Shown here one piece after another: positions 3,751-25,487 of a stretch of DNA of 64,000 bases (within the stretch, counting starts at the first letter, position 1; each line of letters starts with the position of its first letter). Below the pieces are notes generated by a model. It was not told the DNA's origin and did not search any database. It worked only from the letters and a program-made list of their open reading frames with translations. Position numbers and translations under genes: made by a program. Source of the stretch: Shinella zoogloeoides (lineage in GTDB: Bacteria > Pseudomonadota > Alphaproteobacteria > Rhizobiales > Rhizobiaceae); contig NZ_QNUJ01000002.1 in the NCBI RefSeq assembly GCF_003574625.1, positions 372,001 through 436,000 on the forward strand. Reading direction: 5' to 3'.

Positions 3751-5316
3751 CTAGCGCAGGGCATCGATCACGTCGGCCGACCGGGTGACAGCCGATACGT
3801 TCTGGAGGGCATAGTTGATCGCGGCGTTGTGCCAGTCGGCATTCATCGTCGAGCAGCAATCCTCCGGCACGATCATGATATAGCCCTTATCCGCACCGGT
3901 GCGGGCGGTGTGCTCGATGGACATGTTCGTCCATGCCCCGGTGACGATGACCATGTCGCGCTGCTGCGCCTTCAGGATCGTCTCGAGGCGCGTGCCCTCC
4001 CAGGCGCTCATCCGCATCTTCTCCACGACATGATCGCCCGGTTTCGCCTCGAGCCCGTCGACCGGCGCCACGCCCCAGCTGCCGCGCACCAGCGCATTGC
4101 TCTCCACGACCCCTTCGAAGAGCGGCGCATTGAGCGTCAGGCCCGCCGCCCCCGGTTCCACGACGAACCAGACATGGATGACCGGCACGCCGAGCGCGCG
4201 GCAATGGTCCGCCAGCCGCGCGATGTTGCCGATGGCGTTCTGCTCGCGGCAATGCTGCGGCGCGCCGGAACCTGCAAAGGCCCCACCCTCGATCACCACG
4301 TCGTTCTGCATATCCTGGATGATCAGCGCGCAGCGCGCCGGATCGAGCACCGCGCCGGAAGAGGCCGCTCCTGATCCCGCATCGGTGCGCATGCTTGTTG
4401 CTGTTGCGGCCATGAACGGCTCCCTGCGCGGCCCGACCCGCGTTTCAATCGTGTAGACGGAGGTGGTGGCGCAGACATGGAGCGTGCGCCAGTCCGGCCC
4501 GCCCCAGTGCATGTTGGCGGCCTCCTCCGGGATCGCGACCTTGCCGACAAGCCTGCCGCCCGGGTTATAGACCCAGAGCCCGCCGGGCGCCGTCACCCAG
4601 ACATTCCCCTCGGCATCGCACTTCATCCCATCCGGGAGACCCGGCCTGCCGGGATCGCGAATGCCGGTCGCGAACATCCGCCCTTCCGAAAGCGAGCCGT
4701 CCGGCCGCACGTCGAAGACACGGATATTCGCCTGCTCGGTGTCGTTGATATAGAGAAGGCACTCATCCGGCGAGAAGCAGAGGCCGTTGGGCTGGGAGAA
4801 AAGATAGCGGCTGGTGACGAGCTGCGGCTCGCGGCCTGTCGAGCCCGGCGGAATGCGGAACACGCCCTGCCAGCCGAGCTCGCGCGGGCGCTCGACGCCG
4901 AAGCCTGCCATGCGGCCGTACCACGGATCGGTGAAGTAGATCGAACCGTCCGAGCGGATGCAGAGATCGTTGGGCGAATTCAGCTCCCGCCCCTCGAAAT
5001 GCGAGGCCAGCACCTCCCGACGCCCGTCCGGGCCGATCCGCGCGACGCTGGAGGTCGCGTGTTCGCAGACGACGAGATTGAGTGCGGCATCGTAGGTCAT
5101 GCCGTTGCCCTTGTTGGAGGGCCGCGCCACCTCGCGCACGCCGGAGCGGTCGAGCCGACGCCGGACGTCGCCGGGCATGTCGGAAAAGAGCAGGTAATGA
5201 TCCAGCGGATGCCAGACCGGACCTTCGGTGAAGATGAAGCCGGTACCGGCGCGCGTGACCGCCGCCTGCGGATCGATCAGCCGCTCGAAGGCGGGGTCGA
5301 GTGCTTCATGAACCAT
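3751..5316 (-). CDS. Fusion of an SMP-30/gluconolactonase-like domain and an isochorismatase-like hydrolase domain
   Basis: Residues about 20-295 form an SMP-30/gluconolactonase beta propeller with the expected metal ligands: E31, N116 (SPND), N177 (QPNG) and D229 (LPDG). An Ala/Ser-rich linker follows (about 303-325). Residues about 328-521 form an isochorismatase-like alpha/beta domain with D335 (IIQDMQND) and K433 (VVEKM). The third residue of the usual amidase triad, a cysteine in TNxC, is S466 here (TNMSIE), so a Cys-dependent amide hydrolase mechanism is unlikely. The gene is the last in the long minus-strand catabolic operon and starts 23 bases after the amidohydrolase stop, behind a GGGGAGG site. 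The likely role is opening a lactone and then hydrolysing the product, but the substrate is unknown. Confidence 0.88.
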   Translation of the reverse strand: MVHEALDPAFERLIDPQAAVTRAGTGFIFTEGPVWHPLDHYLLFSDMPGDVRRRLDRSGVREVARPSNKGNGMTYDAALNLVVCEHATSSVARIGPDGRREVLASHFEGRELNSPNDLCIRSDGSIYFTDPWYGRMAGFGVERPRELGWQGVFRIPPGSTGREPQLVTSRYLFSQPNGLCFSPDECLLYINDTEQANIRVFDVRPDGSLSEGRMFATGIRDPGRPGLPDGMKCDAEGNVWVTAPGGLWVYNPGGRLVGKVAIPEEAANMHWGGPDWRTLHVCATTSVYTIETRVGPRREPFMAATATSMRTDAGSGAASSGAVLDPARCALIIQDMQNDVVIEGGAFAGSGAPQHCREQNAIGNIARLADHCRALGVPVIHVWFVVEPGAAGLTLNAPLFEGVVESNALVRGSWGVAPVDGLEAKPGDHVVEKMRMSAWEGTRLETILKAQQRDMVIVTGAWTNMSIEHTARTGADKGYIMIVPEDCCSTMNADWHNAAINYALQNVSAVTRSADVIDALR

Positions 5317-5339
5317 CGCGCGCCCTCCCCGAGGCTCGA

Positions 5340-6224
5340 TCAGAGTTTGTAGACACGGCTTGCCGTGTCGTGGAAAACCGCCTGCCGCGCGGTCTCGTCG
5401 AGGCTAGATGCCGCGATCTGGAAAGCGCCGAGCAGCGCACCGTAATCCGTCCAGAGCTTCTCGACGGGGAAGTTGGAGCCGAAGAGGCAGCGACTGGCGC
5501 CGAAAATGCCGACCGTGTCGGCGAGGATGCGGGCGATGTGCCCCGTGTCGTTGCGGTGGATGAACGTGCCATAGGCGGAAAGCTTGCTGACGACGTTCTG
5601 CTCGCGGGCAAGCGCCTGCAATTCGGCTTTCCAGGCGGCATAGCCTTCCGCGCTCATATCCTCCGGCATGCCGGAATGCTGCAGCACGAAGGTTACGTTC
5701 GGGCAGGCGCGGGCAAGCTCCGCCGCTCCCTTCATCTGCGGGGCGAAGACCTGCAGGTCGAAACTCCAGCCGTAATCGGCAAGCCGCGCGACATTGCGCC
5801 GGACATTGGCATCGCGGCAGAGATCCGGGCCGGAAGCGAAGCGGTAGAGCGGATTGCGATGCCAGTGGAACTGCTGGCGGATGCCGCGCATGCGGGAATA
5901 TTTCGCCAGCCGGTCGAGCGCGGGGCGGGCGTCCTCCACCGTCATGTCGCAATAGCCGACGATGGCGTGCGGCCAGCCGGTGCGCTCCCCCTCGCCCTGC
6001 ACCCAGGCGACTTCGTCCTCGAAGCGGTCCCTCGCCCAGTTGGCCTGCACATAGACGGATTTCACGATGCCCCGGCCCTCGATATCGGCGAGGAATTCCT
6101 CGATGGGATAGTCGCGCCGGATCGCCTCGTAGGGCCCGAAAATGCGCGGCTGCATCGGACCCATCAGCCAGGGCAGGTCGCGCTGGCGCCAGATATGGTG
6201 ATGTGCGTCGACGATCTTCATCAT
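5340..6224 (-). CDS. Amidohydrolase family 2 protein (lactonase-like TIM barrel, COG3618 type)
   Basis: This 294-residue TIM-barrel hydrolase starts with the family signature DAHHHIW at residues 6-12, which supplies two metal-binding histidines. It has QHSGMPED in the middle and the terminal strand FGSNFPVEKLW, where usual members have FGSDWP. The relatives include L-fuconolactonase, 4-sulfomuconolactonase and 2-pyrone-4,6-dicarboxylate lactonase, enzymes that open lactone rings. The first ATG of an ATGATG pair overlaps the stop of the upstream VWA gene (ATGATG contains TGA), so translation is coupled. The asparagine in place of the usual aspartate in FGSN/DxP is a small oddity. A lactone or cyclic imide substrate made by the hydroxylase encoded upstream is plausible but inferred. 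Confidence 0.88.
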   Translation of the reverse strand: MMKIVDAHHHIWRQRDLPWLMGPMQPRIFGPYEAIRRDYPIEEFLADIEGRGIVKSVYVQANWARDRFEDEVAWVQGEGERTGWPHAIVGYCDMTVEDARPALDRLAKYSRMRGIRQQFHWHRNPLYRFASGPDLCRDANVRRNVARLADYGWSFDLQVFAPQMKGAAELARACPNVTFVLQHSGMPEDMSAEGYAAWKAELQALAREQNVVSKLSAYGTFIHRNDTGHIARILADTVGIFGASRCLFGSNFPVEKLWTDYGALLGAFQIAASSLDETARQAVFHDTASRVYKL

Positions 6225-7330
6225 GCTGCCCTCGCTATCGTCAGGATTTCCTCGCAGATCGCGGCGGTACCGGAGCCGTTACCCAGCCGGTCGAGGGTCG
6301 GCGCGATGGCCGAGATCGCGGCGGTCTGCGGAACATATCCGCTGTCGCCGGCAAGCGGCGTCAGCCATGCGAGCTTCCAGGCACGGCGGGAAAGCGCCCG
6401 TACCGCCTCCACCAGCCGCTCCGGATCGCCGCGCTCGAGCCCGTCGGAAAGAACGATGACCAGCGCGCCGCGCGAAAAGCCCGCAAAGCGCGGCACCGAA
6501 AGAAAGGCGGCGAGCGCATCGCCGAGCCGCGTGCCGCCGTCCCAGTCGGCAACGAGCGTCGCAGCGCTCGCGAGCGCCTGCTCCTGCCGCCTGAGCCTCA
6601 GCGCACGGGTCACGCGGGTGAGCCGCGTGCCGAGGGTGAAGATTTCCACATGATCCGAGACGGCGGCGAGCGCATGGGCGAAGCGCATGTGGGTTTCCGT
6701 CTGCTGCTTCATCGAGCCGGAAACGTCGATGAGGAGCAGGATGCGGCGCTGGCGCGTCTTGCGCGCCATCTGTGGAAGGCGCATCACCTCGCCGTCGCGC
6801 TTGACGGCGTCGCGCATGAGCTTGCGCATGTTCCAGCGATCGCCCGATCTTGCCGGCGCGCGGCGCTGCGTCAGGCGCCGCGGCAGGCGGCTTGCCGCCT
6901 GCTTGCGAAAGCGCCGCAACGCTTCGTTCTCCGCAAGGTCGGCGAACTGCCGGAGCGTCAGCACCTCGCTGCCCGTCGCCTGCTCGCCGGCCTCGTTGAT
7001 CTCGTCGGCCTCCGGCGGCTCCATCTCGCCCTCGCGCTCGTCGAAGGCCTGCAGCTCCTCGTCGTCCTCCGCCTTCTCGCCGGCCGCGATCGACTGGCCG
7101 AGGAAATGCAGACGGAAGAGCGCGTCGAAATCCTCCCGTCGCTCCGGTGGCGGGGCGAGCGTGGCAAGCCCCGCCTTGTGGATGTCGCCCATCTGCCGGG
7201 GGCCGAGCAGGCCGACGGCGGCGATGAACATTTCCGTCTGCTCCGGCGCCACCATGAAGGCATTCTCGCGCAGGAGCGTCGAGAACTCGACGAAGGGACG
7301 CGCGGCGCGCGGCAGGTCCCCGCCGCTCAT
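6221..7330 (-). CDS. VWA-domain protein, CoxE-like partner of a MoxR ATPase
   Basis: The ATG at 7330 is chosen because it overlaps the MoxR stop (ATGA) and because upstream in-frame sequence is arginine-rich and shadow-like. The product has 369 residues: a helical N-terminal part, an acidic stretch (about 87-120), a basic stretch (about 138-196), and a C-terminal von Willebrand factor A domain with an intact MIDAS motif DVSGS at 202-206, later TRLGD and VIVLSDG. This is the architecture of CoxE-like proteins. In the carboxydotrophic cox operon CoxD (MoxR ATPase) and CoxE act together in maturing the molybdenum/copper site of CO dehydrogenase. Here the pair follows directly after the molybdenum hydroxylase genes, so a maturation or sulfuration role for that enzyme is the natural inference. 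Confidence 0.9.
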   Translation of the reverse strand: MSGGDLPRAARPFVEFSTLLRENAFMVAPEQTEMFIAAVGLLGPRQMGDIHKAGLATLAPPPERREDFDALFRLHFLGQSIAAGEKAEDDEELQAFDEREGEMEPPEADEINEAGEQATGSEVLTLRQFADLAENEALRRFRKQAASRLPRRLTQRRAPARSGDRWNMRKLMRDAVKRDGEVMRLPQMARKTRQRRILLLIDVSGSMKQQTETHMRFAHALAAVSDHVEIFTLGTRLTRVTRALRLRRQEQALASAATLVADWDGGTRLGDALAAFLSVPRFAGFSRGALVIVLSDGLERGDPERLVEAVRALSRRAWKLAWLTPLAGDSGYVPQTAAISAIAPTLDRLGNGSGTAAICEEILTIARAA

Positions 7331-8208
7331 GCCGCCGCTCCCGAAATCAGCGTGTCGAGCCGCGGCGCGGTGAAGGCGAGATCGTCCTGGTCCTTGAGGG
7401 CGACGCCGATCGCCCGCCTGAAGGCGGCGGGCCAGGGCGCGCCCTGCGAATGGAGCAGCGTAGCGGCTTCCGCCCATTCCACGGTCTCGGCGACGCCCGG
7501 AGGCTTGGCGAGTGGCTCCTGCCGCAGCCGCCCGACCGCGGCGACGACCGCCTCGGCCGTGCTGCGCGCGACGGCGCTGGCCCGCATCATCACGATCTCC
7601 GCCTCGCGGACCGCATCCGGATAGCCGATCCAGTGATAGACGCAGCGGCGGCGCAGCGCTTCGTGCAAGTCCCGCGTGCGGTTGGAGGTAAGGATGACGA
7701 CCGGACGGTGTTCGGCGCGCACCGTGCCGCGCTCGGGAATGGAGATGGAGAAATCGGAGAGAAATTCCAGCAGGAAAGCCTCGAATTCATGGTCCGAGCG
7801 GTCGATTTCATCGATGAGCAGCACGGCGTCGCGCGGGCTCGTCAGCGCCTCCAGCATGGGCCGGTTGATGAGGAACTCATCCGAATAGATGTTGACATAG
7901 GTGTCGCCGGCCTGACGGATCGCCAGCATCTGGCGGGGATAGTTCCATTCGTAGAGCGCCGCGGCGGAATCGATGCCCTCGTAGCATTGCAGGCGAATCA
8001 GGTTGCGGCCGAGCACCGAGGCGATGGCCTTGGCCGCCTCCGTCTTGCCGACGCCGGGCGCACCTTCGAGCAGCAGGGGCTTGCCGAGCGCCAGCGCCAG
8101 ATACCCCGCCGTCGAAAGACCGTCGTCGGCTAGATACTGCGCCGCCGTCAGGGCGGAGGCGAGCTTTTCCGGGCTGTCGATGCCGACGATGGAGCGGGTG
8201 ACGGGCAC
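7327..8208 (-). CDS. MoxR-family AAA+ ATPase, CoxD-like
   Basis: This 293-residue protein has a Walker A motif GAPGVGKT at residues 49-56, a Walker B motif LLIDEID at 130-136, a sensor-1 region VILTSNRTRDL and a helical lid domain. MoxR ATPases act as chaperones together with VWA proteins, usually on metalloenzyme complexes, and CoxD is the version linked to molybdenum hydroxylases. A GTG at 8208 preceded by GTGAGGT is the best start, 8 bases after the stop of the hydroxylase gene. The stop overlaps the ATG of the VWA gene by four bases. The cytoplasmic location follows from the lack of any signal or membrane segment. Confidence 0.92.
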   Translation of the reverse strand: MPVTRSIVGIDSPEKLASALTAAQYLADDGLSTAGYLALALGKPLLLEGAPGVGKTEAAKAIASVLGRNLIRLQCYEGIDSAAALYEWNYPRQMLAIRQAGDTYVNIYSDEFLINRPMLEALTSPRDAVLLIDEIDRSDHEFEAFLLEFLSDFSISIPERGTVRAEHRPVVILTSNRTRDLHEALRRRCVYHWIGYPDAVREAEIVMMRASAVARSTAEAVVAAVGRLRQEPLAKPPGVAETVEWAEAATLLHSQGAPWPAAFRRAIGVALKDQDDLAFTAPRLDTLISGAAA

Positions 8209-8216: not shown

Positions 8217-9239
8217 TCACCATTTCGGCTGCGGGCGCGCGCCGCCCTGCGCGGCGAGCGCCCGCAGGATCTTTTCCGGCGTGATCGGAAGATCGTCGAT
8301 GCGCACGCCGACGGCGTTGAAGACGGCGTTGGTGACGGCCGGAAGCACGGGATTGGCGCACATTTCCCCCGGCCCCTTGCCGCCGAACGGGCCATCGGGC
8401 GCCGGCCGCTCCAGCACGGATATGTGGTGCGGCGCGATATCGCCGGGGCCGGGCATGACATAGTCGTTGAAGTCCACCGGGCCATGGCTGCGGTCGGGAT
8501 AATAGGGCTCCGTGGTCTCCCAGAGCGTGTGGCTCATGCCCATCCAGGCGCCACCGACGAGCTGCTGCTCCACCAGCCGTGGATTGAGCGCCCGGCCGAC
8601 CTCGTAGCAACTGTTCATCTCGACGACATTCACCTCGCCCGTCTCGTCGTCGACATCGATATCGACGATCATCGCGGCATGGGCAAAGCAGGTGACCGGC
8701 GTCATCTCGCCGGTTTCCGGATCGACATCCGACAGCGGCACAAGGAAGATGCCGCGGCCGGACACGGTCTTGCCCTGCTTGAACTGGGCAGCATTGCAGG
8801 CGGCCGCCGTGGTGATCGACTTCGACGGGGCACCCTTCACATGAATGTTCCCCTTGCCGTCGGTCACGAGATCCTCGGCATTGACCTCCAGCTCCTCGGC
8901 CGCCGCCTCCATCATCACGGCGCGCGCCTCGGTGGCCGCAGCGATCACCGCATTGCCGACGCGGTGCGTGCCGCGCGAGGCGAAAGATCCCATGCAGTGC
9001 GGGCCGGTATCGGAATCGGCCGTATCGACATAGACGTCCTCCACGGGAATACCGAGCGTTTCGGCGGCGATCTGGCGCGTCACCGACTTCATGCCCTGCC
9101 CGAGATCGATGGAGGAGAGCGCGACCATGAATTTTCCGTCCGGGTTGGAATGGACGAGCGCCTGCGACGGGTCGCCGCCGAGATTCATGCCGATCGGGTA
9201 ATTGATGGCGGCAAAGCCGCGTCCGCGATGGATCGTCAT
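8217..9239 (-). CDS. Molybdenum hydroxylase (xanthine dehydrogenase family) large subunit, C-terminal half
   Basis: This 340-residue protein corresponds to the second half of a normal XDH/CoxL-type molybdopterin subunit. It contains IDLGQGMKSV (usual GQG loop, 44-53), the GSFASRGTHRVGNAV stretch, and near the end GGKGPGEMCANP, whose E292 is the conserved base that activates the water ligand of molybdenum. The ATG at 9239 lies one base after the stop of the gene encoding the first half, and MTIHRGRGF is in the same place as the domain break of intact subunits. With that partner it would form one catalytic subunit. The two-gene arrangement recalls nicotinate dehydrogenase of Eubacterium barkeri. 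Frame and length leave no sign of a simple sequencing error. Confidence 0.9.
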   Translation of the reverse strand: MTIHRGRGFAAINYPIGMNLGGDPSQALVHSNPDGKFMVALSSIDLGQGMKSVTRQIAAETLGIPVEDVYVDTADSDTGPHCMGSFASRGTHRVGNAVIAAATEARAVMMEAAAEELEVNAEDLVTDGKGNIHVKGAPSKSITTAAACNAAQFKQGKTVSGRGIFLVPLSDVDPETGEMTPVTCFAHAAMIVDIDVDDETGEVNVVEMNSCYEVGRALNPRLVEQQLVGGAWMGMSHTLWETTEPYYPDRSHGPVDFNDYVMPGPGDIAPHHISVLERPAPDGPFGGKGPGEMCANPVLPAVTNAVFNAVGVRIDDLPITPEKILRALAAQGGARPQPKW

Positions 9240-9240
9240 G

Positions 9241-10878
9241 TCAGCGCCTCCTGAGGCCGGAAATGGACGAGAAGCGGTTGCCGGCCGGCCGGGGCGTCGT
9301 TGGCGACGGAGCAGCCGGCGGCGGGGCGGCCTGTGCCGGCTCGTAGGGCCGGACGGGCTGCGGCTCCGGGCTGTAGGACGGCGGCGTATAGGCTGGCGTG
9401 GGTGTGTAGCCCGGTGCCGGCGGCGGCTGGTAGCTGCCGAGGCCGGAGGCCGGCCTGGCAAGGCCGCGATTGTCGATGATCGTGTGCGGGATCGCTGCCC
9501 GCTCGCCGCCACCGCCCTTCAGCGAGGACATGGCGCGATATTCCGGGCCGATCGACCATTTCGCCTTTTCCGCCACGACCTGGCAGCATTCGACGAGGGC
9601 GGTGTTCTTGGCGAGCCGCCGGTGGGCCTTCATGTCCCCGTCGAGATAGGCGTTCTTCAGTCGCAGCTCGATCGGGTTCATCTTCACCCGGTGGGCGACT
9701 TTGTCCATGTGGGTCTCGATGGCGAAATCCACGCCCGTGATGCCGAAGCCGCGCATGGCGGTGGCCGGCGTGCGGTTGGTGAAGACGCAGTAGACATCCG
9801 CCGAGACATTCGGGATCGTATAGGGCCCCGGCAGGTGGCCGACGCTCTTGATGATCGCGTAGCTCGAAAGGCGCGTATAGGCGCCGCTGTCGAAATAGCC
9901 GGTGAACTTGCGGGCGACGATGCGGCCGTCGTTCATCACCCCGTCGGTGATGTACCAGCGCTCCGCCCCGCGCGGGGCACCGACCTGCATCTCCTCCTCG
10001 CGATTCCAGATGAACTTGACCGGCCGCCCCGTCAGCATGCAGCCGAGGATGGCCATCGGCTCATGGATGGAATCCACCTTGCCGCCGAAACCGCCGCCCA
10101 CGGTGCCGCCGATGAAATGCATGCGGTTTGACGAGAGCTTCAGGATCTTCGCCGCCGTGCCGAGCGAGAAGAACAGCGCCTGCGTCGAGGTATAGACGAC
10201 ATAGCGGTTGTTGGTCTCGGGCGCGGCGATGGCGCCGCAGGTCTCCGTCGGCGCCTGCTCGATGGGCGACATCTGGTAGCGGCCTTCGACGACATGGTCC
10301 GCCTGCCGGAGCGCGGCCTCCACGTCGCCGAAGCGCAGCTTCTGGTGATCGTATTTCTCGTGATAGGTGAAAGTATTGGTGGGATAGGTCGGATTGACCG
10401 AGGGGGCACCGGGTTTCAGCGCCTCCTCGACATCGAGCACATGGGGCAGCACGTCGTAGTCGACGCGGATTTTCGCGATGGCGTCATAGGCCTGCCGCTC
10501 GCTTTCCGCCACCACGGCGACGACCGGCTCGCCGACATAGGCGACCTTCTTGTCAGCCAGCATCGGCTCGTCGTCGAGGCCGAAGCCCATGAGGCTAAGC
10601 AGGGTGTTGAGGTTGTGCGGCACGTCCCGGGCGCGGATAATGCGCCTGACGCCCGGCATGCGTTCGGCCTCGGACGTGTCGACCGAGCGGATGCGCGCAT
10701 GATGGTGCGGCGAGCGCAGGCATTTCAGGTGCAGCAGCCCGTCGAACAGGTGATCGTCGAAGAACGGGGAGCGGCCGGTCACGTGGCCGAGCATGTCCTG
10801 GCGCTGCGTCGGCTTGCCGATCTCGTTGAGCGTATCGTCGCGCTCGTCGGCGAAATATTCCTTGCGAAATTCGATCAT
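9241..10878 (-). CDS. Molybdenum hydroxylase large subunit, N-terminal half with a proline-rich tail
   Basis: This 545-residue protein matches the first half of XDH-family molybdopterin subunits: an N-terminal a/b hammerhead (residues about 18-130, IGKPTQRQDMLGHVTG onward) and molybdopterin-binding domain 1 with GGTVGGGFGGK near 258-268 and the AMRGFG loop (FTNRTPATAMRGFG). It then departs from the family: residues 482-545 are a low-complexity tail rich in Pro, Tyr, Ala and Thr ending SGLRRR. The partner gene with the second half starts one base after the stop. It starts 10 bases after the 2Fe-2S gene. Substrate cannot be read from the sequence; aldehyde, nicotinate, purine and aromatic N-heterocycle oxidases all share this fold. 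Confidence 0.9.
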   Translation of the reverse strand: MIEFRKEYFADERDDTLNEIGKPTQRQDMLGHVTGRSPFFDDHLFDGLLHLKCLRSPHHHARIRSVDTSEAERMPGVRRIIRARDVPHNLNTLLSLMGFGLDDEPMLADKKVAYVGEPVVAVVAESERQAYDAIAKIRVDYDVLPHVLDVEEALKPGAPSVNPTYPTNTFTYHEKYDHQKLRFGDVEAALRQADHVVEGRYQMSPIEQAPTETCGAIAAPETNNRYVVYTSTQALFFSLGTAAKILKLSSNRMHFIGGTVGGGFGGKVDSIHEPMAILGCMLTGRPVKFIWNREEEMQVGAPRGAERWYITDGVMNDGRIVARKFTGYFDSGAYTRLSSYAIIKSVGHLPGPYTIPNVSADVYCVFTNRTPATAMRGFGITGVDFAIETHMDKVAHRVKMNPIELRLKNAYLDGDMKAHRRLAKNTALVECCQVVAEKAKWSIGPEYRAMSSLKGGGGERAAIPHTIIDNRGLARPASGLGSYQPPPAPGYTPTPAYTPPSYSPEPQPVRPYEPAQAAPPPAAPSPTTPRPAGNRFSSISGLRRR

Positions 10879-11377: not shown

Positions 11378-12190
11378 TTACCTCCTCTGGTCGAGCAGAA
11401 GCCGCTTCAGATGAACCGGCGTCACCTGGCGGCGGTACCATTCCGAGGCGAGCGCATCGGTCTGCGGATTGATGCCGTCGGTGGCGGCGGAAAGGGCAGG
11501 CGCGATGCCCTGCTCGTCGAGCGTACGGCCTTCGAGCGCCTGCTCGACGGCCAGCGCCCGCACCGGGTGGCCGCCCATGGCGCCATAGGCGACGCGCGCG
11601 CCGGAAACCCGCCCGCCATTCGTCGGAAGCAGCGCGGCGATGGACAGGACCGCGACACCCTTCGGCTTCACGCGGCTCACCTTGACGAAGCGGAAAGCGC
11701 GCGAATCGCGCGGGCGCGGCACGATCACCGAGAGGACGAGGCGGCGCGGCTCGCGGTCGCGCGCATCGAGGAAATCGCCCATCGGCACGGGCGTGCCGCC
11801 CACCGGCACCACCTTGGCGTCGAGCGCCAGCAGCGCGGCGGCGAAGTCACCATAGGGGGAGGCGGCAAAGAGATTGCCGCCGACCGTCGCGACGGTACGA
11901 ATGGCCGGCCCGCCAATGACCTTCGCGACGGGCGCGAGGAAGGCCGCGTCGCGGCTGGCGATGATCTGGCTCATCGTCACGCCGGCGCCGATCACCACGC
12001 TGTCGCCCTGCAGCTGGATCTGCCTGAGGCGCGGATCGGTGGCGCGCACGATCGTATCGAAGGCCTGGTCGCCGGCATTGACCGCCCGCATGACGAGCGT
12101 GCCGCCGCCGAAATAGCGCGCCGTCCGGCTGGCGGCGAGCGCGCGCTCGGCCTCCTCGGCGCCCTGGAATGTCCTCACACTGACCGGCAT
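11378..12190 (-). CDS. Molybdenum hydroxylase FAD-binding subunit (CoxM-like)
   Basis: This protein of 270 residues has the FAD-binding motifs of the family: FGGGTLVMRAV near the N-terminus (usual AGGTDL loop), the central TVGGNLFAASPYGDF motif and the C-terminal CO_deh_flav domain. It accepts electrons from the 2Fe-2S subunit and passes them to NAD or another acceptor. The ATG at 12190 follows GGGAGGAGCGGACAG, which is a better start than the in-frame ATG farther upstream inside the preceding gene. The order FAD, 2Fe-2S, large subunit is the same as in coxMSL. It starts 16 bases after the SRPBCC gene. Confidence 0.93.
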   Translation of the reverse strand: MPVSVRTFQGAEEAERALAASRTARYFGGGTLVMRAVNAGDQAFDTIVRATDPRLRQIQLQGDSVVIGAGVTMSQIIASRDAAFLAPVAKVIGGPAIRTVATVGGNLFAASPYGDFAAALLALDAKVVPVGGTPVPMGDFLDARDREPRRLVLSVIVPRPRDSRAFRFVKVSRVKPKGVAVLSIAALLPTNGGRVSGARVAYGAMGGHPVRALAVEQALEGRTLDEQGIAPALSAATDGINPQTDALASEWYRRQVTPVHLKRLLLDQRR

Positions 12191-12206: not shown

Positions 12207-12665
12207 TCATGCATCCGCCGCGCGGGCGGCGAGGCCCATGTGCCGGCGCACCGCTGCGAAACCCGTTTCGTAAATGCCTTCGCCGACCATCGCGGCAAGC
12301 GCTGCCTCCTCGCCCACCGGCGTGTCGAAGCGCGATTGCCATTCCCAGAAGGTCAGGTCGCCATCCGTCACCGGCGTCAGCCGCACATGGGCGACGTAGT
12401 TGAGCAGCGGCACCGGCGTATCCAGCAGGCAATAGCTGAAGGCCATGTCCATGTCGGAGAGCGTCAGGAGCTGTTCACGCAGCTCGGAACCGTCCGCCAG
12501 ATGGAAGCGGCGGACGCAGCCGACACGGTCGAACGGCTGCCCACGCTCGATCTGGCTGTCGGCGACGGCCGGGTGCCAGCGGTCATGGCCGTTGAAATCG
12601 CGCAGGATCTCCCAGACCGCCTCGACGGGCGCCTCCAGAACGGTGCTCTTGACGATCTTCACCAT
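12207..12665 (-). CDS. SRPBCC-superfamily protein (polyketide cyclase/START-like), copy 2
   Basis: The 152-residue protein has the SRPBCC pattern: an N-terminal strand (VKSTVLEAPVEAVWEILRDF), the RWHPAV loop, a long curved sheet and a C-terminal helix. It is paralogous to the neighbouring gene product (shared features: FNG-x2-RWHP, DRVGCVR/DRIGCVR, LTPVTDGD/ERTF). SRPBCC proteins bind hydrophobic small molecules. In the cox operon a member of this superfamily, CoxG, anchors CO dehydrogenase to the membrane, which makes a carrier or anchor role near this hydroxylase attractive. The gene is 3 bases after its paralogue and upstream of the FAD subunit. No catalytic residues can be named. Confidence 0.85.
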   Translation of the reverse strand: MVKIVKSTVLEAPVEAVWEILRDFNGHDRWHPAVADSQIERGQPFDRVGCVRRFHLADGSELREQLLTLSDMDMAFSYCLLDTPVPLLNYVAHVRLTPVTDGDLTFWEWQSRFDTPVGEEAALAAMVGEGIYETGFAAVRRHMGLAARAADA

Positions 12666-15789: not shown

Positions 15790-16626
15790 TCAGCATCCCC
15801 TTATCTTCTTGAATGCGCGGGTCTGTTCGGTAAGCGCCACCTCGACCGGCAGCCGCTCCATGGAGGAGGCGCCGTAGAAGCCGTGGCAATTGTCCGTGTT
15901 CTTCAGGATGAATTCGGCGTCCTCGGGCGTTGCCACCGGCCCGCCATGGACGAGGATCATCACGTCGCTGTTGACCTTCAATGCCGCCTCGGCCCAGCGG
16001 TTGACCAGGGCCGGACATTCGGAAAGCCTGAGCGCCGTCTCCGCGCCGATGGAGCCGCCCGTCGTCAGCCCCATATGGCAGACGACGATGTCGGCCCCCG
16101 CCGCCGCCATGGCTGCCGCCTCGTCCTCGTTGAAGACATAGGGCGTCGTCAGCATGTCGAGCCCGCGGGCCTTGGCGATCATGTCGACCTCCAGCCCGTA
16201 GGACATGCCCGTTTCTTCCAGATTGGCGCGGAAGGTACCGTCGATCAGCCCGACCGTCGGAAAGTTCTGCACGCCGGAAAAGCCGATGCGTTTCAGCTCC
16301 GGCAGGAAGACGTCCATCAGTCGGAACGGATCCGTGCCATTGACGCCGGCAAGGACGGGCGTGTGGCTCACCACCGGCAGGACTTCGGAGGCCATGTCCA
16401 TAACGATGCCGTTGGCGTCGCCATAGGCGAGAAGCCCGGCGAGCGAACCGCGGCCGGCCATGCGGTAGCGGCCGGAATTGTAGATGACGATGAGGTCGAT
16501 GCCGCCGGCCTCCTCGCATTTCGCCGAAAGGCCGGTGCCCGCGCCGCCGCCGATGATCGGCTCGCCCCGGTCGATCATGCCGCGGAACTTCTCAAGGATG
16601 GCGCTGCGCGCGATGGCCATGGTCAT
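15790..16626 (-). CDS. TIM-barrel protein of the phosphoenolpyruvate-hydrolase family (Tm-1 C-terminal-like)
   Basis: The 278-residue protein belongs to the TIM-barrel family known in Pfam as TIM-br_sig_trns and annotated as phosphoenolpyruvate hydrolase family. Recognisable parts are [19 protein letters not shown] (residues about 26-44), [18 protein letters not shown], the [12 protein letters not shown] segment, CHMGLTTGG and [11 protein letters not shown]. The same domain is the C-terminal part of the plant Tm-1 antiviral protein. The start overlaps the stop of the upstream LivF-UPF0261 gene by four bases (ATGA), and UPF0261 is the N-terminal part of plant Tm-1. The reaction in bacteria is not established. 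The flotillin gene follows after 37 bases. Confidence 0.88.
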
Positions 16627-18812
16627 CTCCTCGTCTTGCTGGCACGCGGGCGGCTCGTGCCGTGAAGGGCGCGGAAGGCGCGCACGATCTCGTCGGCGAA
16701 GGCCGCGTCGTTGATGTTGTGGGGCATGCGGATGAGCTGGCGGTTCGCCGTCTGCCGCACCGTCTCCTCCAGCGTGCGGAACAGCGCCTCGTCCGCCGCC
16801 TTGTCGTGGAAGGGCTGGCCCAGCCTGTCGAGCGCGGAAACGCCGCCCTCCGGCAGGTAGAAGCGCACCGGCGCTTCCATCTCGTTGAGCCGCGCACCGA
16901 TGAAGCGCGCCATCTCGACATTCTCGGCGACGCTGGTGCGCATGAGCGTGACCTGCGGATTGTGCTTGTAGAAAAGCCGCCCGCGGTACTTTTCCGGCAC
17001 CGTCTCGGGCGGGCCGAAATTGACCATGTCGAGCGCGCCGACCGAGCCGATATAGGGCATGCGCCTGTGGATCATCGCGCCGAAGCGGTCCGGGCCCGCC
17101 GGGAAGATGCCGCCGGCGACCATGTCGCAGATCTCCGTCGTCGTGATGTCGAGGACGCCGGCGATCAGCCCGCTGTCGACGAGGCTTTCCATCGATTGCC
17201 CGCCGATGCCCGTGGCATGGAAGACGAGGCAGTCGTAGTCGTCCTTCAACTGCGCCGTGATCTGCTGGACGGCGGGCGTGGTGACGCCGAACATGGTGAG
17301 CCCGATCGCGGGCAGTACATCGGCCGGCGCCGGCTTGCGGGTCGCGGCAAGACGCGGCTTCACCATTCCGGCCAGCGCATGGGCGCCGTTGGCGAGGATC
17401 ATCCGCGTGATCGAGTTCAGGCCCTGCACATCCGCCACCGAATGCATCATGACGATATCGGATGCGCCGACATATTTGCGCACGTCGCTCGAGGCGACCG
17501 TCGAGATCATCACCTTGGGAATGCCGACCGGCAGCGCGCGCATGGCGGGCGTCGCCATCGCCGTTCCGCCGGAGCCGGCGGCGCTGATGACGCCGACGAT
17601 CTCGCCCCGGCTCTTCACCCAGCGCTCGAAGGCGAGCGTCATGCCGGCGACGGAGGTACCGCGATCCTCGGTGAAGACGCCGCTGGCGCCGCGCGGATGG
17701 AAGGCCGCGATCTGGTGGGCGGGAATATCCGCGCCGGAATGACGGCCGGAGGTGGAAAGATCGGCAAGGCGCACCGCCAGCCCCTCGGCCTTCAGGAGAT
17801 CGCGGATGAAACGCAGCTCCTCGCCCTTGGTATCGAGCGTGCCGGCCACCAGCACCACCGGCTCACCGGCCGGGCTCAGCGGCCGCAGTTCCGCCGCGTC
17901 CGCCGGCGCGAGCGGCCCGTCGCTGACGAGCCGGGCGGACTGTTCGAGAACCCGCACCGGCACCGGCTGCGACCAGCGCGTCGGCGTCACCGGATTGGAC
18001 ATGTAGAGCTTGCGCTGCTTCGCGGGCGCGCGCGGCGCCGCTTCCTCCGACACCGCGCCCTTCTGGTCGGGCTCGGCCTCATGGCCGTGGCGGCCGACGC
18101 CGAGCAGGCGCTGCTGGAGATCCCGGTCGCCGGCAAGCTGCGCCGCATCCGCCACGCGGTTGATGCGGCCGTTGACCATGATCGCCACCTTTTCCGCGAC
18201 GCGGGTGGCAACGCCGATATTCTGCTCGATGACGAGCACGTCGATGTCGCCCTCCTCGCCGAGGCGCACCAGCATTTCGGCGACCTGCGCGACGATCACC
18301 GGCGCAAGGCCCTCCGTCGGCTCGTCCATGACGAGCAGCTTCGGATTGAGAAGCAGGGCGCGGGCGATGGCGAGCATCTGCTGCTCGCCGCCGGAAAGCT
18401 GGCCGCCACCATTGCCCTTGCGTTCGGCAAGGCGCGGGAAGGTCGAATAGATGCGCTCGACGGTCCAGGCGCCCTTGTTCGAGCCGACCAGCTTCAGGTG
18501 CTCGTCGACCGTCAGCGAGCGCCAGAGCCGCCGGCCCTGCGGCACGTAGCCGATCCCGAGGCGGGCGATGTCGGCGGGGTTGCGGCCGCGCAGCTCCTGT
18601 CCGTTGAAGCGGATGGACCCGCCGGAGGACGGCACGAGGCCCATGATCGCCTTGCAGAGCGTCGTCTTGCCCATGCCGTTGCGGCCGACGACCGAGAGCA
18701 CGCCGCCCGGCAGCGTCAGGTCGACGCCCTGCAGGGCGTGGGAAGAACCGTAATAGACGTTGAGCCCCCGGATATCGAGCGTCGGGGCGGCGGTGCGGTT
18801 GCGGTCAGCCAT
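16623..18812 (-). CDS. Fusion of a LivF-type ABC ATPase and a UPF0261 (Tm-1-like ATP-binding) domain
   Basis: Residues about 12-240 are a branched-chain amino-acid-type ABC ATPase with Walker A GRNGMGKT (43-50), the signature LSGGEQQ (139-145) and Walker B LLVMDEP (159-165). A charged linker follows. From about residue 317 to the end ([18 protein letters not shown] onward) is a complete UPF0261 domain of about 400 residues, with the [14 protein letters not shown] and [14 protein letters not shown] stretches. The frame is open without interruption; an in-frame ATG at residue 271 without a clear ribosome-binding site could give a free UPF0261 protein. The gene starts inside the last 8 bases of livG. 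The fusion physically ties a cytosolic Tm-1-like enzyme to the importer, suggesting that it acts on the imported compound. Confidence 0.9.
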
Positions 18813-19596
18813 GGCCGAGGCCCCCGCCGAGATAGAGGGCCTGCACTTCCGGATCGCTCTCGATCTCGCTCGGCCGCCCCTCCTTGAAGATGCGGCCGTT
18901 GTGCATCATCGTCACGCTCTCGCTGACGCGGAGCGCCACGTCCATGTCGTGCTCGATGACAATATAGCCGATATGGGACGGCAGGCCGGTCAGGATCTCG
19001 ACCAGCTCCTGCCGCTCGGTCGGCGAGAGGCCGGCGGCCGGCTCGTCGAAGAGGATGAAGCGCGGCGCGCCGGCAAGCGCCAGTGCGATTTCAAGCTGGC
19101 GCTGCTGGCCGTAGGAGAGCTCGGCGACCTTCGTTTCCCGGACGTCGAAGAGGTGGACGGCGGCGGCGAGCTGCTCGGCCGATTGCACCAGCGCATCGCT
19201 GCGGCGCGGGCGGACCATCGAGAAGCGGCCGCGCGAGACGCCGGCACAGGCGAGATAGATGTTGTCGATCACGCTGAGGCCGGTGAAGAGCAGAGAGATC
19301 TGGTAGGTGCGGCGTAGGCCCCGGCGGATACGCTCATAGGCGGGAAAGCCCGTCACGTCCTCGCCGAAGAGCCGGATCGTGCCGGACGTCGGCAGGAAAT
19401 CGCCGGTGATGCAGTTGAAGAGCGTCGTCTTGCCCGCGCCGTTGGAGCCGAGCACGGCGCGCCGCTCGCCCGGCCGCACCGTCAGGGATATGTCGGTGAG
19501 CGCGGCAAGCGCGCCGAACATGCGGGTGACGCCGCGCAGTTCCAGCGCATTGGCCGTACCGGCCGCGGAGAGACGTTCTGCGACGCTGGCGGCCAT
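18805..19596 (-). CDS. livG: Branched-chain-type ABC transporter ATP-binding protein LivG
   Basis: This 263-residue ATPase has Walker A GSNGAGKTT, signature LSYGQQRQLE, Walker B FILFDEPAAGLSP and the H-loop VIEHDMD. The long Walker-B-proximal sequence AGLSPTE and the C-terminal extension EIESDPEVQALYLG are typical of LivG rather than LivF. The ATG at 19596 is shared with the stop of livM in a TGATG overlap. Together with LivH, LivM and the LivF-UPF0261 protein it makes a complete HAAT-family importer. Sequence upstream of 19596 in this frame lies in livM and is not coding. Confidence 0.94.
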   Translation of the reverse strand: MAASVAERLSAAGTANALELRGVTRMFGALAALTDISLTVRPGERRAVLGSNGAGKTTLFNCITGDFLPTSGTIRLFGEDVTGFPAYERIRRGLRRTYQISLLFTGLSVIDNIYLACAGVSRGRFSMVRPRRSDALVQSAEQLAAAVHLFDVRETKVAELSYGQQRQLEIALALAGAPRFILFDEPAAGLSPTERQELVEILTGLPSHIGYIVIEHDMDVALRVSESVTMMHNGRIFKEGRPSEIESDPEVQALYLGGGLGHG

Positions 19597-22929: not shown

Positions 22930-22959
22930 ATTAAACCTGCGAGAATGCCGGTTTTGCAA
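22930..22959 (-). promoter_or_regulatory. Candidate sigma-70 promoter for the AraC gene
   Basis: Read on the minus strand, TTGCAA (22959-22954) and TTTAAT (22935-22930) are separated by 18 bases, about 190 bases ahead of the AraC start. The region from 22744 to 23032 holds no supported gene, so a separate promoter for the regulator is reasonable. Confidence 0.35.
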
Positions 22960-23032
22960 GCCGCACAAGCCGGAAAATGAGACTAAAAGGTATGGAATCG
23001 GGCCTTTCGGCGGCTCTTCGGGACCGGCCGCG

Positions 23033-24166
23033 CTAGAGAGCGTCCGTCAGCATCGCCAGATAGTCCCGCGAGGTCGCCCGCCGGGGGTTCGTTCCGTTGG
23101 TGTGATCCCGCTCCGCAAGCGCTGCGGCAAGCTCCAGAGCGCTGCGGTCGAGGCCCATCTCGCCGAGCCGCGAGGGCAGGCCGAGGCCGACGCTGATCCT
23201 TGAAAAGGCCGCCGCGAGATCACGTCCGGCCGGAATGCCGATCGCCTCGCGGAGCGCCGGATAGCGATGCCCGGCCGCCGGCGCATTGAAGGCGAGCACG
23301 TGGGGCAGCAGCACGGCGTTGAGCGTGCCGTGGTGCAGGTTCGGCTGTTTCAGCCCGCCGAGGGCATGGCTCATCGCGTGGACGCCGCCGAGCCCCTTCT
23401 GGAAGGCGAGCGCGCCGTTGAGCGCCGCGGCCATCATCTCCCTGCGGGAGTCAAGGTCCCGCCCCTCCTCGACTGCCCGCTCGATATTGGCCGCCGCGCG
23501 CCGCAGCCCGTCGAGCGCGATGCCGTCGGCCGGCGGATTATAGGCAGTGGCGATATAGGTCTCCACGCAATGGGTGATGGCATCCATGCCCGTCGCCGCC
23601 GTCAGGTCCGGCGGAAGCGTCAGCGTCAGCGTTGGATCGCAGATCGCCACCTTCGGGATGAGGTAGGGACTGATGAGGCCGAGCTTTCGGCCGTCGTCGA
23701 AGACGATGAGGGCGCCGCGGCCGACTTCCGATCCGGTCCCGGCGGTGGTCGGAATGGCTATGACCGGCGGCAGGATGTTCTGGATGCGCGAGACGCCGCC
23801 CTCCACCGCCGCATAGCTGATGAGCGGCCCGTCATGGCTGACGGCCAGGGCAACCGCCTTGGCAAGGTCGATGGAGGAGCCGCCGCCGAAGCCGATCAGG
23901 CTGTCGCAATCATGGTTTCGATAGGCCGCGGCCGCAGCCCGGCATGCGGCCTCCGTCGGGTTCGCCGGCGTTTCGGCGAAGATCGCCGGTGCGGTTTCCG
24001 TGTCGAAGGCGTCGAGCAGCCGGTCGAGATGGCCGCTGGCGGCAAGGCCGCGATCGGTGACGATCAGGGGGCGGCGGATCGCAAGGGAGCGGGCTTCGAC
24101 GGCAAGCGCTTCCTCAAGAATGTCGTCGGCGAAATGTACCCGGTTGAGGTAAGTGATCAGCGACAA
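23033..24166 (-). CDS. Iron-containing alcohol dehydrogenase
   Basis: This 377-residue protein is a group III (iron-type) alcohol dehydrogenase. It has the NAD-binding GGGSSID motif at 94-100, the PTTAGTGSEV stretch at 139-148 and the metal ligands D195, H199, H263 and H279 (DAITHCVE, GVHAMSHALGG, LHHGTLNA). Relatives include 4-hydroxybutyrate, lactaldehyde and maleylacetate reductases. The start is a TTG at 24166 behind AAGGGGAGG. It lies between the binding-protein gene and the AraC regulator on the same strand, behind a strong hairpin. It probably reduces or oxidises an aldehyde intermediate of the pathway, but the substrate is unknown. Confidence 0.9.
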   Translation of the reverse strand: MSLITYLNRVHFADDILEEALAVEARSLAIRRPLIVTDRGLAASGHLDRLLDAFDTETAPAIFAETPANPTEAACRAAAAAYRNHDCDSLIGFGGGSSIDLAKAVALAVSHDGPLISYAAVEGGVSRIQNILPPVIAIPTTAGTGSEVGRGALIVFDDGRKLGLISPYLIPKVAICDPTLTLTLPPDLTAATGMDAITHCVETYIATAYNPPADGIALDGLRRAAANIERAVEEGRDLDSRREMMAAALNGALAFQKGLGGVHAMSHALGGLKQPNLHHGTLNAVLLPHVLAFNAPAAGHRYPALREAIGIPAGRDLAAAFSRISVGLGLPSRLGEMGLDRSALELAAALAERDHTNGTNPRRATSRDYLAMLTDAL

Positions 24167-24201
24167 GCCAGCCTCCCCTTCCGCTTCGAGGCGCCGATTG
24201 C

Positions 24202-24232
24202 GGAAAGGCCGGGCGCGAACCCGGCCTTCCGT
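24202..24232. terminator. Intercistronic hairpin after the binding-protein gene
   Basis: CGGAAAGGCCGGG (24202-24214) pairs with CCCGGCCTTCCG (24221-24232) with one bulged base and a 6-base loop. There is no long T-run, so it may be a partial terminator or an mRNA stabiliser that keeps the binding protein in excess over the dehydrogenase downstream. Confidence 0.6.
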
Positions 24233-24239
24233 AAAGCGA

Positions 24240-25487
24240 TCAGTAGGACGTCTTGCACTCCGGCGCGTCGCGCGAAGGCAGGCCGATCTTCTTGAAGGAT
24301 TCTTCCGAAAGCCCGAGCGTCTGGTTCACGTCCGGCACGGTCATGACCAGCTTGTTCATCAGGTTGCCGTCCGGCCCTTCCGTGACCTCGCTGATGAAGT
24401 TCGTACCGATCGCCTGGCGGTTGGCGTCGAGCTTGAAGTGGCCGTTCGGCGCATCCAGCTCCATCTTGGCGAGCGCATCGCGGAAGGCCGCCTGGTCGCC
24501 GGAAATGTCGCCCTTGACCTGATCGAGCGCCTTCAGCGTCGCGATGGTGGAATTGTAGTAGCCCGTCGCGAACAGCGAGGGCGACGGGAAGCGCTTGTCG
24601 GCCGGGAAGGCATCCTGATAGGCCTTCACGAACTTCGTCCAGTTCGGATCGGTGGAATCGTCCGCCTGCGGACCGCCGGAAGGCGTACCGATCAGCGCCT
24701 TCTTCGCATCGCCCTTGGCATTGAGCACGGTGCCGTCCACCATGATCGTGCCGCCGATGAGGTGGGCGCTGCCGCCGGCCTGCTGGTACTGGTTCAGGAA
24801 GTTGACGGCGTCGGCGCCGCCGAGGCCGACATAGATGGCATCGACGTCATCGGGCAGCGCCGCGATGATCGAGGAGAAATCCTTGGTGCCGAGCGGCACC
24901 CACTGGCGCTCCGAAATCTGGCCGCCAGCCTGGCAGAAGCCGAGGGCAAAGCCCATGAAGTTGGTGTAGCCGAAGGAATAGTCTTCCGCGACCGAGGCGA
25001 CATTCTTCCAGCCCTTGGTCTCGAAGACATATTTGCCGAGACCCGCGCCCCACTGGGCGCCGTCCATGTTGAAGCGGTAGAAATTCGCGGCCGGATCGAC
25101 CATCGTGGCTTCCTGCGCGCCAGAAAGGCCGTTGACGACCGTGACGTTCGGGTTCTGCTTGGCAAAGTCGCGCAGCGCGATGCCTTCGGATCCGGAAAGC
25201 GGGCCGACGATGACGGTCACGCCGTCCTGGTCCACCAGCTTGCGGGCCGCGCGCACGGCGCTTTCCGGCGTCGTGTCGGTCGAGGCGACGACGGTCTTCA
25301 CCGTCTTGCCGCCGACGGTCGGCATTTCCTTGAGCGCCACCTCGACGCCGCGCATGGCATCCTCGCCGAGGACGGTATAGGTTCCTTCCAGAGTCGCGAG
25401 AACCCCGATCTTCAAGTCCTCGGCGACGGCCGAGCCTGCAAAGAGCAAGGCGCCGAGCGCCACGCTCGTCAGCAAGTACGTTTTCAT
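24240..25487 (-). CDS. Periplasmic binding protein of a branched-chain-type ABC transporter (Peripla_BP_6)
   Basis: This 415-residue protein has a signal peptide (MKTYLLTSVALGALLFAGSA, cleavage after AVA) and begins its mature part with DLKIGVLATLEGTYTVLGED, the typical opening of LivJ/AmiC-like binding proteins. Two alpha/beta lobes follow. The ATG at 25487 is preceded by GGGAGGAG. It is the only binding protein of this class in the window and lies upstream of livHMG on the same strand, so it is the natural partner of that importer even though the dehydrogenase and AraC genes stand between. It has three cysteines, two near the C-terminus. The long in-frame upstream extension is noncoding. 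Confidence 0.92.
   Translation of the reverse strand: MKTYLLTSVALGALLFAGSAVAEDLKIGVLATLEGTYTVLGEDAMRGVEVALKEMPTVGGKTVKTVVASTDTTPESAVRAARKLVDQDGVTVIVGPLSGSEGIALRDFAKQNPNVTVVNGLSGAQEATMVDPAANFYRFNMDGAQWGAGLGKYVFETKGWKNVASVAEDYSFGYTNFMGFALGFCQAGGQISERQWVPLGTKDFSSIIAALPDDVDAIYVGLGGADAVNFLNQYQQAGGSAHLIGGTIMVDGTVLNAKGDAKKALIGTPSGGPQADDSTDPNWTKFVKAYQDAFPADKRFPSPSLFATGYYNSTIATLKALDQVKGDISGDQAAFRDALAKMELDAPNGHFKLDANRQAIGTNFISEVTEGPDGNLMNKLVMTVPDVNQTLGLSEESFKKIGLPSRDAPECKTSY

What the first reader, a model, noticed from the sequence alone, without database searches (positions are those of the whole stretch)
3751..25487. A 21 kb one-strand locus coupling a Liv-type importer, Tm-1-like enzymes, a giant flotillin and a Cox-like molybdenum hydroxylase
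Seen: from livH (21694) down to 3751 every gap is short or an overlap, and the order is transporter, LivF-UPF0261, TIM barrel, flotillin, two SRPBCC, FAD/FeS/large-subunit halves, MoxR, VWA, amidohydrolase, SMP-30/isochorismatase-like fusion. Known: MoxR/VWA (CoxD/CoxE) mature the Mo site of CO dehydrogenase and CoxG, an SRPBCC protein, anchors it to the membrane. Inferred: a compound is imported, handled by the UPF0261/TIM-barrel pair, hydroxylated by a membrane-scaffolded Mo enzyme and then hydrolysed as a lactone or cyclic amide. I know of no described pathway with this gene set, and the substrate is unknown.
Basis: partly seen in the sequence, partly recalled or inferred. Interest (0 to 1): 0.85.

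Follow-up and report, generated by a model that had tools for sequence, protein, structure and literature searches.

The report
Flotillin-linked molybdenum hydroxylase catabolic locus
A 16-gene block that looks like one operon for importing and breaking down an unknown small molecule is kept in the same order in many alphaproteobacteria, and its molybdenum enzyme carries a conserved tail seen only in the lineage that has a giant flotillin next to it.

Summary
LivH (21694) to the SMP-30/isochorismatase fusion (3751) is 16 same-strand genes with no gap over 37 nt. The order holds in 60 of 60 related stretches (57 genomes or records, some cut short); TIM, amidohydrolase and an MBL-fold gene are each missing from 2-3. 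No described pathway was found in the one library searched.

The locus looks like a merger of two operons. The front half (Liv importer with LivF-UPF0261 fusion, Tm-1-type TIM barrel, flotillin, two SRPBCC) occurs without the hydroxylase. The back half (split Mo hydroxylase, mostly with MoxR, VWA, COG3618 hydrolase) occurs without the front half, also in actinobacteria.

New: the hydroxylase's N-half has an 87-192 residue tail ending in an RFSSxxGxRRR-like peptide in 53 of 53 intact copies of this lineage; flotillin is beside every copy whose stretch reaches its place. Sister enzymes have 0-23 residues and no flotillin nearby (28 of 28). I infer docking on a flotillin scaffold; this is not shown and rests on one evolutionary origin.

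The enzyme is nicotinate-dehydrogenase-like rather than CO-dehydrogenase-like. The substrate is unknown; an anionic heteroaromatic or lactone-forming compound is my guess.

The parts
24240..25487 (-). Liv-type substrate-binding protein (415 aa)
   Evidence: PF13458 4.8e-51; start
23033..24166 (-). iron-containing alcohol dehydrogenase (377 aa); not found in some relatives (for example G113, G171, G194, G143)
   Evidence: PF00465
21889..22743 (-). AraC-family regulator
   Evidence: PF12833
20681..21694 (-). LivH permease
   Evidence: PF02653
19596..20681 (-). LivM permease
   Evidence: PF02653; 51 of 51
18805..19596 (-). LivG ATPase
   Evidence: PF00005; 51 of 51
16623..18812 (-). LivF ATPase fused to UPF0261 (N-half of plant Tm-1), 729 aa
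   Evidence: PF00005, PF06792, PF23189; Tm-1 3wry 330 bits
15790..16626 (-). PF09370 TIM barrel (C-half of plant Tm-1)
   Evidence: 433 bits; 2p10; 50 of 52
13122..15752 (-). giant flotillin, 876 aa: SPFH domain, 44-residue coiled-coil repeat, Flot domain
   Evidence: PF01145, PF15975; repeat; 54 of 54
12669..13109 (-). SRPBCC protein 1
   Evidence: PF10604 2.3e-27
12207..12665 (-). SRPBCC protein 2
   Evidence: PF10604 1.5e-22
11378..12190 (-). FAD subunit of Mo hydroxylase
   Evidence: PF00941, PF03450
10889..11374 (-). 2x[2Fe-2S] subunit
   Evidence: PF01799, PF00111
9241..10878 (-). Mo large subunit, N-half, with C-terminal tail (about residues 442-545)
   Evidence: PF01315, PF02738; tail
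9241..9276 (-). codons of the conserved C-terminal peptide RFSSISGLRRR and the stop codon
   Evidence: conserved
8217..9239 (-). Mo large subunit, C-half
   Evidence: PF20256 2.2e-55
7327..8208 (-). MoxR-type AAA ATPase
   Evidence: PF00004/PF07728; NCBIfam MadB 266 bits, below its 475 cut-off
6221..7330 (-). CoxE-type VWA protein
   Evidence: PF05762 9.7e-43
5340..6224 (-). COG3618-type amidohydrolase (lactonase fold)
   Evidence: PF04909; AlphaFold model pLDDT 94.5, top fold match 4dlf; 43 of 46
3751..5316 (-). SMP-30/gluconolactonase domain fused to isochorismatase-like domain (Ser at the usual nucleophile Cys)
   Evidence: PF08450, PF00857; motif

Best explanation
It is an alphaproteobacterial catabolic locus made by joining two older operons. 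One brings a small molecule in (Liv importer, with its LivF ATPase fused to UPF0261) and carries the split Tm-1 pair, a flotillin and two SRPBCC proteins. The other is a stand-alone unit that hydroxylates a substrate with a MoxR/VWA-matured, nicotinate-dehydrogenase-like Mo enzyme and then opens the product with a COG3618 hydrolase. With the join, the Mo enzyme's N-half gained a long flexible tail with a conserved C-terminal peptide that, I infer, docks the enzyme on a membrane-bound flotillin assembly, keeping it near the importer, the SRPBCC carriers and the respiratory chain; further lactonase-like enzymes (MBL fold, SMP-30/isochorismatase) finish ring opening. Shown: gene order, the two halves existing apart, the tail and its co-occurrence with flotillin. 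Inferred: docking, membrane metabolon, electron path, ring opening, substrate class (anionic heteroaromatic or lactone-forming).
For: Same order in 60 of 60 stretches. Front half without hydroxylase (types B, C) and back half without front half (type E) found separately; 18 of 28 type-E stretches carry MoxR, VWA and amidohydrolase, and none of 28 has flotillin, TIM or UPF0261 on the enzyme's strand. UPF0261 tree: all 32 type-A rows form one clade (97/94), next to 5 of 6 type-B rows (89/86). SRPBCC2 of type A groups with the SRPBCC domain that type B has fused to a zinc-type dehydrogenase (100/99; 12 type-A loci used). N-half tree: type A is one clade (100/100) nested among tail-less type-E enzymes. 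Tail: 53 of 53 intact type-A copies (24 of 26, 24 of 26, 4 of 4, the window; 4 run off contigs) end in RRR after 87-192 residues; 28 of 28 type-E copies have 0-23 (7, 18, 3). Flotillin is in 54 of 54 type-A stretches that span its place. The 64%-identity clade G328/G511, fetched after the rule was noticed, fitted: flotillin, tail and RFSSVFGSRRR. In G100 the locus is split between TIM and flotillin, and flotillin stays with the enzyme. The peptide is on no other of 797 called proteins (15 of 15 hits are this subunit). Flotillins form membrane-attached cages (PMC11260169, abstract and introduction). Nearest solved enzyme: nicotinate dehydrogenase, 303 bits against 222 for the next.
Against: Tail and flotillin association arose once, so the match is one event, not many. 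No binding was tested. TIM is missing from 2 of 52 stretches, amidohydrolase and MBL gene from 3 each, so not every enzyme is needed. In the TIM tree type A needs 4 changes and three type-D rows fall among it, which a simple single merger does not predict. The sixth type-B locus (Variovorax) falls elsewhere in the UPF0261 tree. 10 of 28 type-E stretches lack one or more of MoxR, VWA, amidohydrolase; some are short, but G120, G484 and Salinigranum are 20-29 kb, so the back half is not always the full unit. The amidohydrolase has an invariant Asn where I place LigI's catalytic Asp248 (by motif), and the isochorismatase domain lacks the Cys, so lactone or amide hydrolysis is uncertain. No regulator or neighbour names the substrate.
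Confidence: 0.5

Rival explanations
1. CoxG-like reading: the SRPBCC proteins are subunits, anchors or quinone carriers of the hydroxylase, as CoxG is for CO dehydrogenase; the flotillin is only a general membrane microdomain and the tail binds something else.
For: SRPBCC lies directly before the FAD gene in type A and in the AraC-type E loci. CoxG is proposed to recruit CO dehydrogenase to the membrane (PMC4240915, passages), and CoxG-like proteins bring archaeal G3PDH to the membrane (PMC11962113, passages). A CoxG homologue is proposed for 3-hydroxypyridine dehydrogenase (cited in PMC11962113).
Against: SRPBCC proteins accompany UPF0261/TIM with no hydroxylase in 11 of 20 loci; in type B one is fused to a zinc-type dehydrogenase (Pfam run on the G092 protein); Pfam names Polyketide_cyc2, not CoxG; 8 type-E loci have an EthD-like gene between C-half and MoxR.
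Confidence: 0.25
2. Two pathways side by side: UPF0261/TIM/Liv and the hydroxylase act on unrelated compounds and share only expression.
For: Both halves exist alone; G100 keeps them 178 kb apart; TIM lost in 2 of 52.
Against: Order kept in 60 of 60 stretches; overlapping or near-touching genes throughout; the LivF-UPF0261 fusion and two SRPBCC genes stay with the enzyme in all covered stretches.
Confidence: 0.15
3. Purine-type pathway: the enzyme is a xanthine dehydrogenase with downstream ring opening.
For: Xanthine dehydrogenase models are the best-scoring NCBIfam models for the N-half.
Against: The halves score 276.7 and 123.7 on pucD against a 783.65 cut-off; the Glu after GGGFGGK of bovine xanthine oxidase is Val here and Leu in nicotinate dehydrogenase.
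Confidence: 0.05

Closest known systems
Nicotinate dehydrogenase (PDB 3hrd, split Mo subunit)
   Same: separate N-half Mo subunit matched over its whole length; best solved match by a wide margin
   Different: no such tail in the aligned chain; flotillin, Liv and UPF0261 context not known to me for it; substrate of the window enzyme untested
3-Hydroxypyridine dehydrogenase HpdA, Ensifer adhaerens HP1 (AEM 2020; paper not held, seen only as a reference and a paraphrase)
   Same: title says four-component; a CoxG homologue is proposed as anchor; clusters said to be common in alpha-, beta-, gammaproteobacteria and actinobacterial lineages
CO dehydrogenase cox cluster (Oligotropha)
   Same: MoxR-type ATPase and VWA protein next to a Mo hydroxylase with FAD and FeS subunits
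   Different: no CoxL Cys loop, no CoxG by Pfam, large subunit split
Tm-1-like UPF0261 + TIM-barrel pair
   Same: both domains, adjacent, strong matches; reported as co-evolving in prokaryotes and fungi (PMC5028733, passages)
   Different: here UPF0261 is fused to LivF and the pair sits in an import/hydroxylase locus
Flotillin / SPFH cages
   Same: Band_7 and Flot domains
   Different: 871-1137 aa as called, 44-residue repeats, inside a catabolic-type operon

Membership tests
Molybdenum hydroxylase (xanthine oxidase family) | FAD, 2x[2Fe-2S] and Moco domains with catalytic GxGE Glu | tested here: met
   GPGE in the C-half read (motif recalled)
CO dehydrogenase form I | CoxL active-site Cys loop | tested here: not met
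   ATAMRGFG at the site (CoxL motif recalled)
CO dehydrogenase form I | CoxL model score | tested here: inconclusive
   TIGR02416: halves 166.8 and 108.3 against 991.15; the cut-off is for one unsplit chain
CoxG | match to a CoxG family model | tested here: not met
   only Polyketide_cyc2/Polyketide_cyc at E<=1e-3
Nicotinate dehydrogenase | split Mo subunit, NDH-like sequence | tested here: met
   3hrd_A 303 bits over profile positions 15-437
Nicotinate dehydrogenase | acts on nicotinate | not testable with these tools
   needs enzyme assay
Flotillin | SPFH domain plus Flot domain | tested here: met
   PF01145, PF15975
Flotillin | membrane cage assembly | not testable with these tools
   needs cryo-EM
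Tm-1 family | UPF0261 and PF09370 domains | tested here: met
Cys-dependent isochorismatase-like amidases | nucleophile Cys | tested here: not met
   GAWTNMS[IV]EHTAR in 16 of 16 called fusions (2 of them fragments), Ser at the usual Cys (Cys position recalled)
COG3618 lactonases | fold | tested here: met
   4dlf TM 0.84; LigI chains 0.66-0.68
COG3618 lactonases | catalytic Asp (LigI Asp248) | tested here: inconclusive
   N251 (GSNFP) invariant in 21 of 21; equated with Asp248 by motif, not by a residue-level superposition
HpdA 3-hydroxypyridine dehydrogenase | orthology to HpdA subunits | not testable with these tools
   paper not held

The most novel reading that the evidence does not exclude
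A giant, repeat-built bacterial flotillin forms a membrane cage that houses or docks a catabolic molybdenum hydroxylase through a dedicated C-terminal peptide, giving a membrane-bound metabolic compartment, and the split Tm-1 proteins work in the same pathway, offering a first handle on the enzymology of the Tm-1 family.
Probability: 0.3. Interest if true: 0.85.

Novelty: new variant of a known kind. Interest (0 to 1): 0.62.

Why it matters
It is a widespread, tightly conserved locus for which I found no described pathway, so a common environmental compound may await its enzymes. The tail peptide makes a bacterial flotillin-client interaction directly testable. The link to UPF0261/TIM gives a route to the biochemical role of the Tm-1 family, whose tomato member is a virus-resistance protein.

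Tried and rejected
Substrate from neighbours: type-E neighbourhoods share AraC + SRPBCC or GntR + EthD-like genes and no further enzyme common to them that I could see; some stand beside ribose-type ABC genes, not informative. Substrate from active-site residues: Lys stands at the bovine Arg880 place (numbering recalled), but Arg also occurs there in an aldehyde oxidoreductase, so not diagnostic. Solved homologues of the binding protein are remote (137 bits at best). MadB/MadC names in NCBIfam led to no paper. Promoter and terminator scans gave no more than shuffles. Literature: ten searches of one open-access library; subscription papers are mostly absent, so 'no described pathway' is limited to it.

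Counts and dropped rows: of 24 non-own genomes with TIM and hydroxylase close together on one contig, I fetched 20 (not G035, G019, G184, G078). Twenty further TIM loci without a type-A hydroxylase in the genome were fetched; G105 has a type-E enzyme elsewhere. One search used same-strand hits of 45% identity or more and counted a gene as covered only between detected genes, so the end genes (LivH, fusion) cannot score as missing; its 60 stretches come from 57 genomes or records (G024, G103, G100 give two each). Named and unnamed sets may hold the same species, so 53 and 60 are not independent samples. More distant split enzymes (L180, L181 at 42-43%, and L186, L188-L190 at 36-38%) have ends of 32-63 residues without RRR and are in neither tail count; a type-E copy in Sinorhizobium BG8 is interrupted and left out. 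My gene caller missed genes in some loci (for example G040, G080, G115, G043, G148), so the 797 proteins are not all genes there. The type-E stretches often end within 10 kb, so 'no flotillin' means none in the stretch held.


Full report
Observation. The block is real. Gene starts and stops place SBP at 24240-25487, LivH at 20681-21694 and the last gene at 3751-5316; between LivH and the last gene 16 genes follow with spacings of -8 to +37 nt. The genome is close to Shinella: a S. zoogloeoides plasmid carries the N-half at 99.1% identity.

Conservation. In 199 genomes of the order, PF09370 occurs in 63 and an N-half hydroxylase relative at E<=1e-60 in 49; 31 of these (own genome included) are at 70% identity or more, 5 at 53-59%, the other 13 at 40% or less. 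In 337 genomes of the class drawn separately, 7 (own included) match at E<=1e-120. I fetched 20 loci with both genes; all 20 keep the order from LivH to the contig end or the fusion gene. With further unnamed and named loci (Bradyrhizobium, Sedimentitalea, a Paracoccaceae MAG, a Methylocystis MAG, a Roseomonas MAG, a Yoonia plasmid) 60 of 60 stretches are in canonical order. Where covered, all queried genes are present except TIM (50 of 52; missing in G157 and L140), the amidohydrolase (43 of 46) and the MBL-fold gene (40 of 43; missing from the window, L140 and G356). The own assembly has no MBL match.

Modules. Twenty TIM loci without the hydroxylase were read. Eight have the Liv importer, five a flotillin, eleven an SRPBCC protein. 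Type B (G050, G085, G087, G092, G131 and Variovorax CP063167) has Liv, LivF-UPF0261, TIM, a shorter flotillin (562-744 aa), SRPBCC1 and a 490-511 aa SRPBCC2 protein, which in G092 is an SRPBCC domain fused to a zinc-type dehydrogenase. In G045, G146 and G173 (type C) there is no flotillin hit, and LivF and UPF0261 are separate genes. Type D is UPF0261-TIM alone or with sugar-type ABC, cupin and Gfo/Idh genes. Conversely type E carries the split Mo enzyme without Liv, UPF0261, TIM or flotillin of this kind next to it; 18 of 28 stretches also have MoxR, VWA and the amidohydrolase, with AraC + SRPBCC or GntR + EthD-like genes in front or between. Full type-E units were seen in Mesorhizobium, Pseudaminobacter, Nonomuraea, Streptosporangium and Virgisporangium; a Chloroflexi MAG lacks the amidohydrolase, and the haloarchaeon Salinigranum has the Mo enzyme with an SRPBCC protein only.

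Trees. Type-A UPF0261 is one clade (97/94) next to five of six type-B rows (89/86), the Variovorax row lying elsewhere; the TIM tree is less clean (4 changes for A, three D rows among it). SRPBCC2 of A joins SRPBCC2 of B (100/99); SRPBCC1 of A, B and most E rows fall in one weaker group (82/82) that also holds some C and D rows (12 type-A loci used). In the N-half tree type A is one clade (100/100) nested among type-E rows, with G328/G511 as its first branch. The simplest account is a merger of a type-B-like and a type-E-like operon.

The tail. Type-A N-halves run 87-192 residues past the conserved domain and end in RFSSISGLRRR, RFSSVFGTRRR, SRFISGTRRR and the like; the linker is often Pro-rich but is charged in G511, while the end is kept. 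All 53 intact copies end in RRR (24 of 26, 24 of 26, 4 of 4, plus the window; 4 run off contigs). The 28 type-E copies have 0-23 residues there (7, 18, 3). Flotillin is present in 54 of 54 type-A stretches that span its place; four of the 53 tailed copies (L146, L152, L179, G103a) lie on stretches that do not reach it. None of the 28 type-E stretches shows it. The 64%-identity clade G328/G511, fetched after the rule was noticed, obeyed it. In G100 the locus is split between TIM and flotillin and the tail stays on the flotillin side. Since type A is one clade, all this may reflect one event; the argument for function is that the end peptide is kept while the linker drifts in length and make-up. 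Docking on flotillin is an inference.

The flotillin. Each of the 20 type-A flotillins tested has its strongest self-similarity at lag 44 (four 11-residue turns); type B has 113 on top in 4 of 4 tested, and the short G062 protein 33. Called lengths of 871-1137 aa are consistent with different repeat numbers. Human flotillins form a truncated-cone cage on membranes (PMC11260169, abstract and introduction read), so a longer coiled coil could give a taller cage; this is speculation.

The enzyme. The profile of 13 N-halves matches nicotinate dehydrogenase best (303 bits; next 222), over the full length of its separate N-half subunit. It is not a CO dehydrogenase by motif (motif recalled); the model scores are low but the cut-offs are for unsplit chains. 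The Glu that follows GGGFGGK in bovine xanthine oxidase is Val here and Leu in nicotinate dehydrogenase. The isochorismatase domain has Ser at the Cys place in 16 of 16. The amidohydrolase model (pLDDT 94.5) matches COG3618 and LigI structures but has Asn where I place the Asp, in 21 of 21. MBL relatives in the PDB are AHL lactonases and 4-pyridoxolactonase. Three lactonase-like folds in one operon point to ring opening; none was assayed.

Known systems. CoxG is proposed to recruit CO dehydrogenase to the membrane (PMC4240915, passages), and CoxG-like proteins anchor an archaeal G3PDH (PMC11962113, passages). A four-component 3-hydroxypyridine dehydrogenase with a proposed CoxG-type anchor is cited there and in PMC10117386 (passages); the paper itself is not held, so I could not test whether type E or A is that enzyme. 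If it is, the back half would be known and the front half plus tail would remain new. UPF0261 and the TIM domain are reported to co-evolve (PMC5028733, passages), with no enzymatic function named in the passages I saw.

Noticed in passing
window 25686-31131 (-): Directly upstream of the binding protein: a ribose-type ABC set (binding protein, permease, double ATPase) and a second Amidohydro_2 gene (30286-31131); I did not notice it beside the other type-A loci.
   Followed up: partly
own genome G000:C1:458310-462809: A second, divergent UPF0261/TIM locus with two TIM domains (33-39% identity).
   Followed up: no
L140 and L121 (G157): TIM gene missing between UPF0261 and flotillin.
   Followed up: partly
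window 3751-5316 and relatives: Isochorismatase-like domain without the usual Cys, conserved Ser, fused to SMP-30.
   Followed up: partly
L109: The Yoonia copy lies on a plasmid near tyrosine recombinases, with an aldehyde dehydrogenase, two SDRs and an FAH-family gene added. SBP, LivG, TIM and FeS each match in two pieces and TIM, LivG and FeS are not in the gene table: broken genes or sequencing errors.
   Followed up: no
type-A LivF-UPF0261 C-termini: Short basic tails (such as RPRASKTRR) in many type-A proteins that the type C and D UPF0261 proteins shown lack.
   Followed up: no
L134, L138, L139: UPF0261/TIM pairs on Vibrio, Gluconobacter and Ewingella plasmids with other neighbours, for example a putative quinol monooxygenase.
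   Followed up: no
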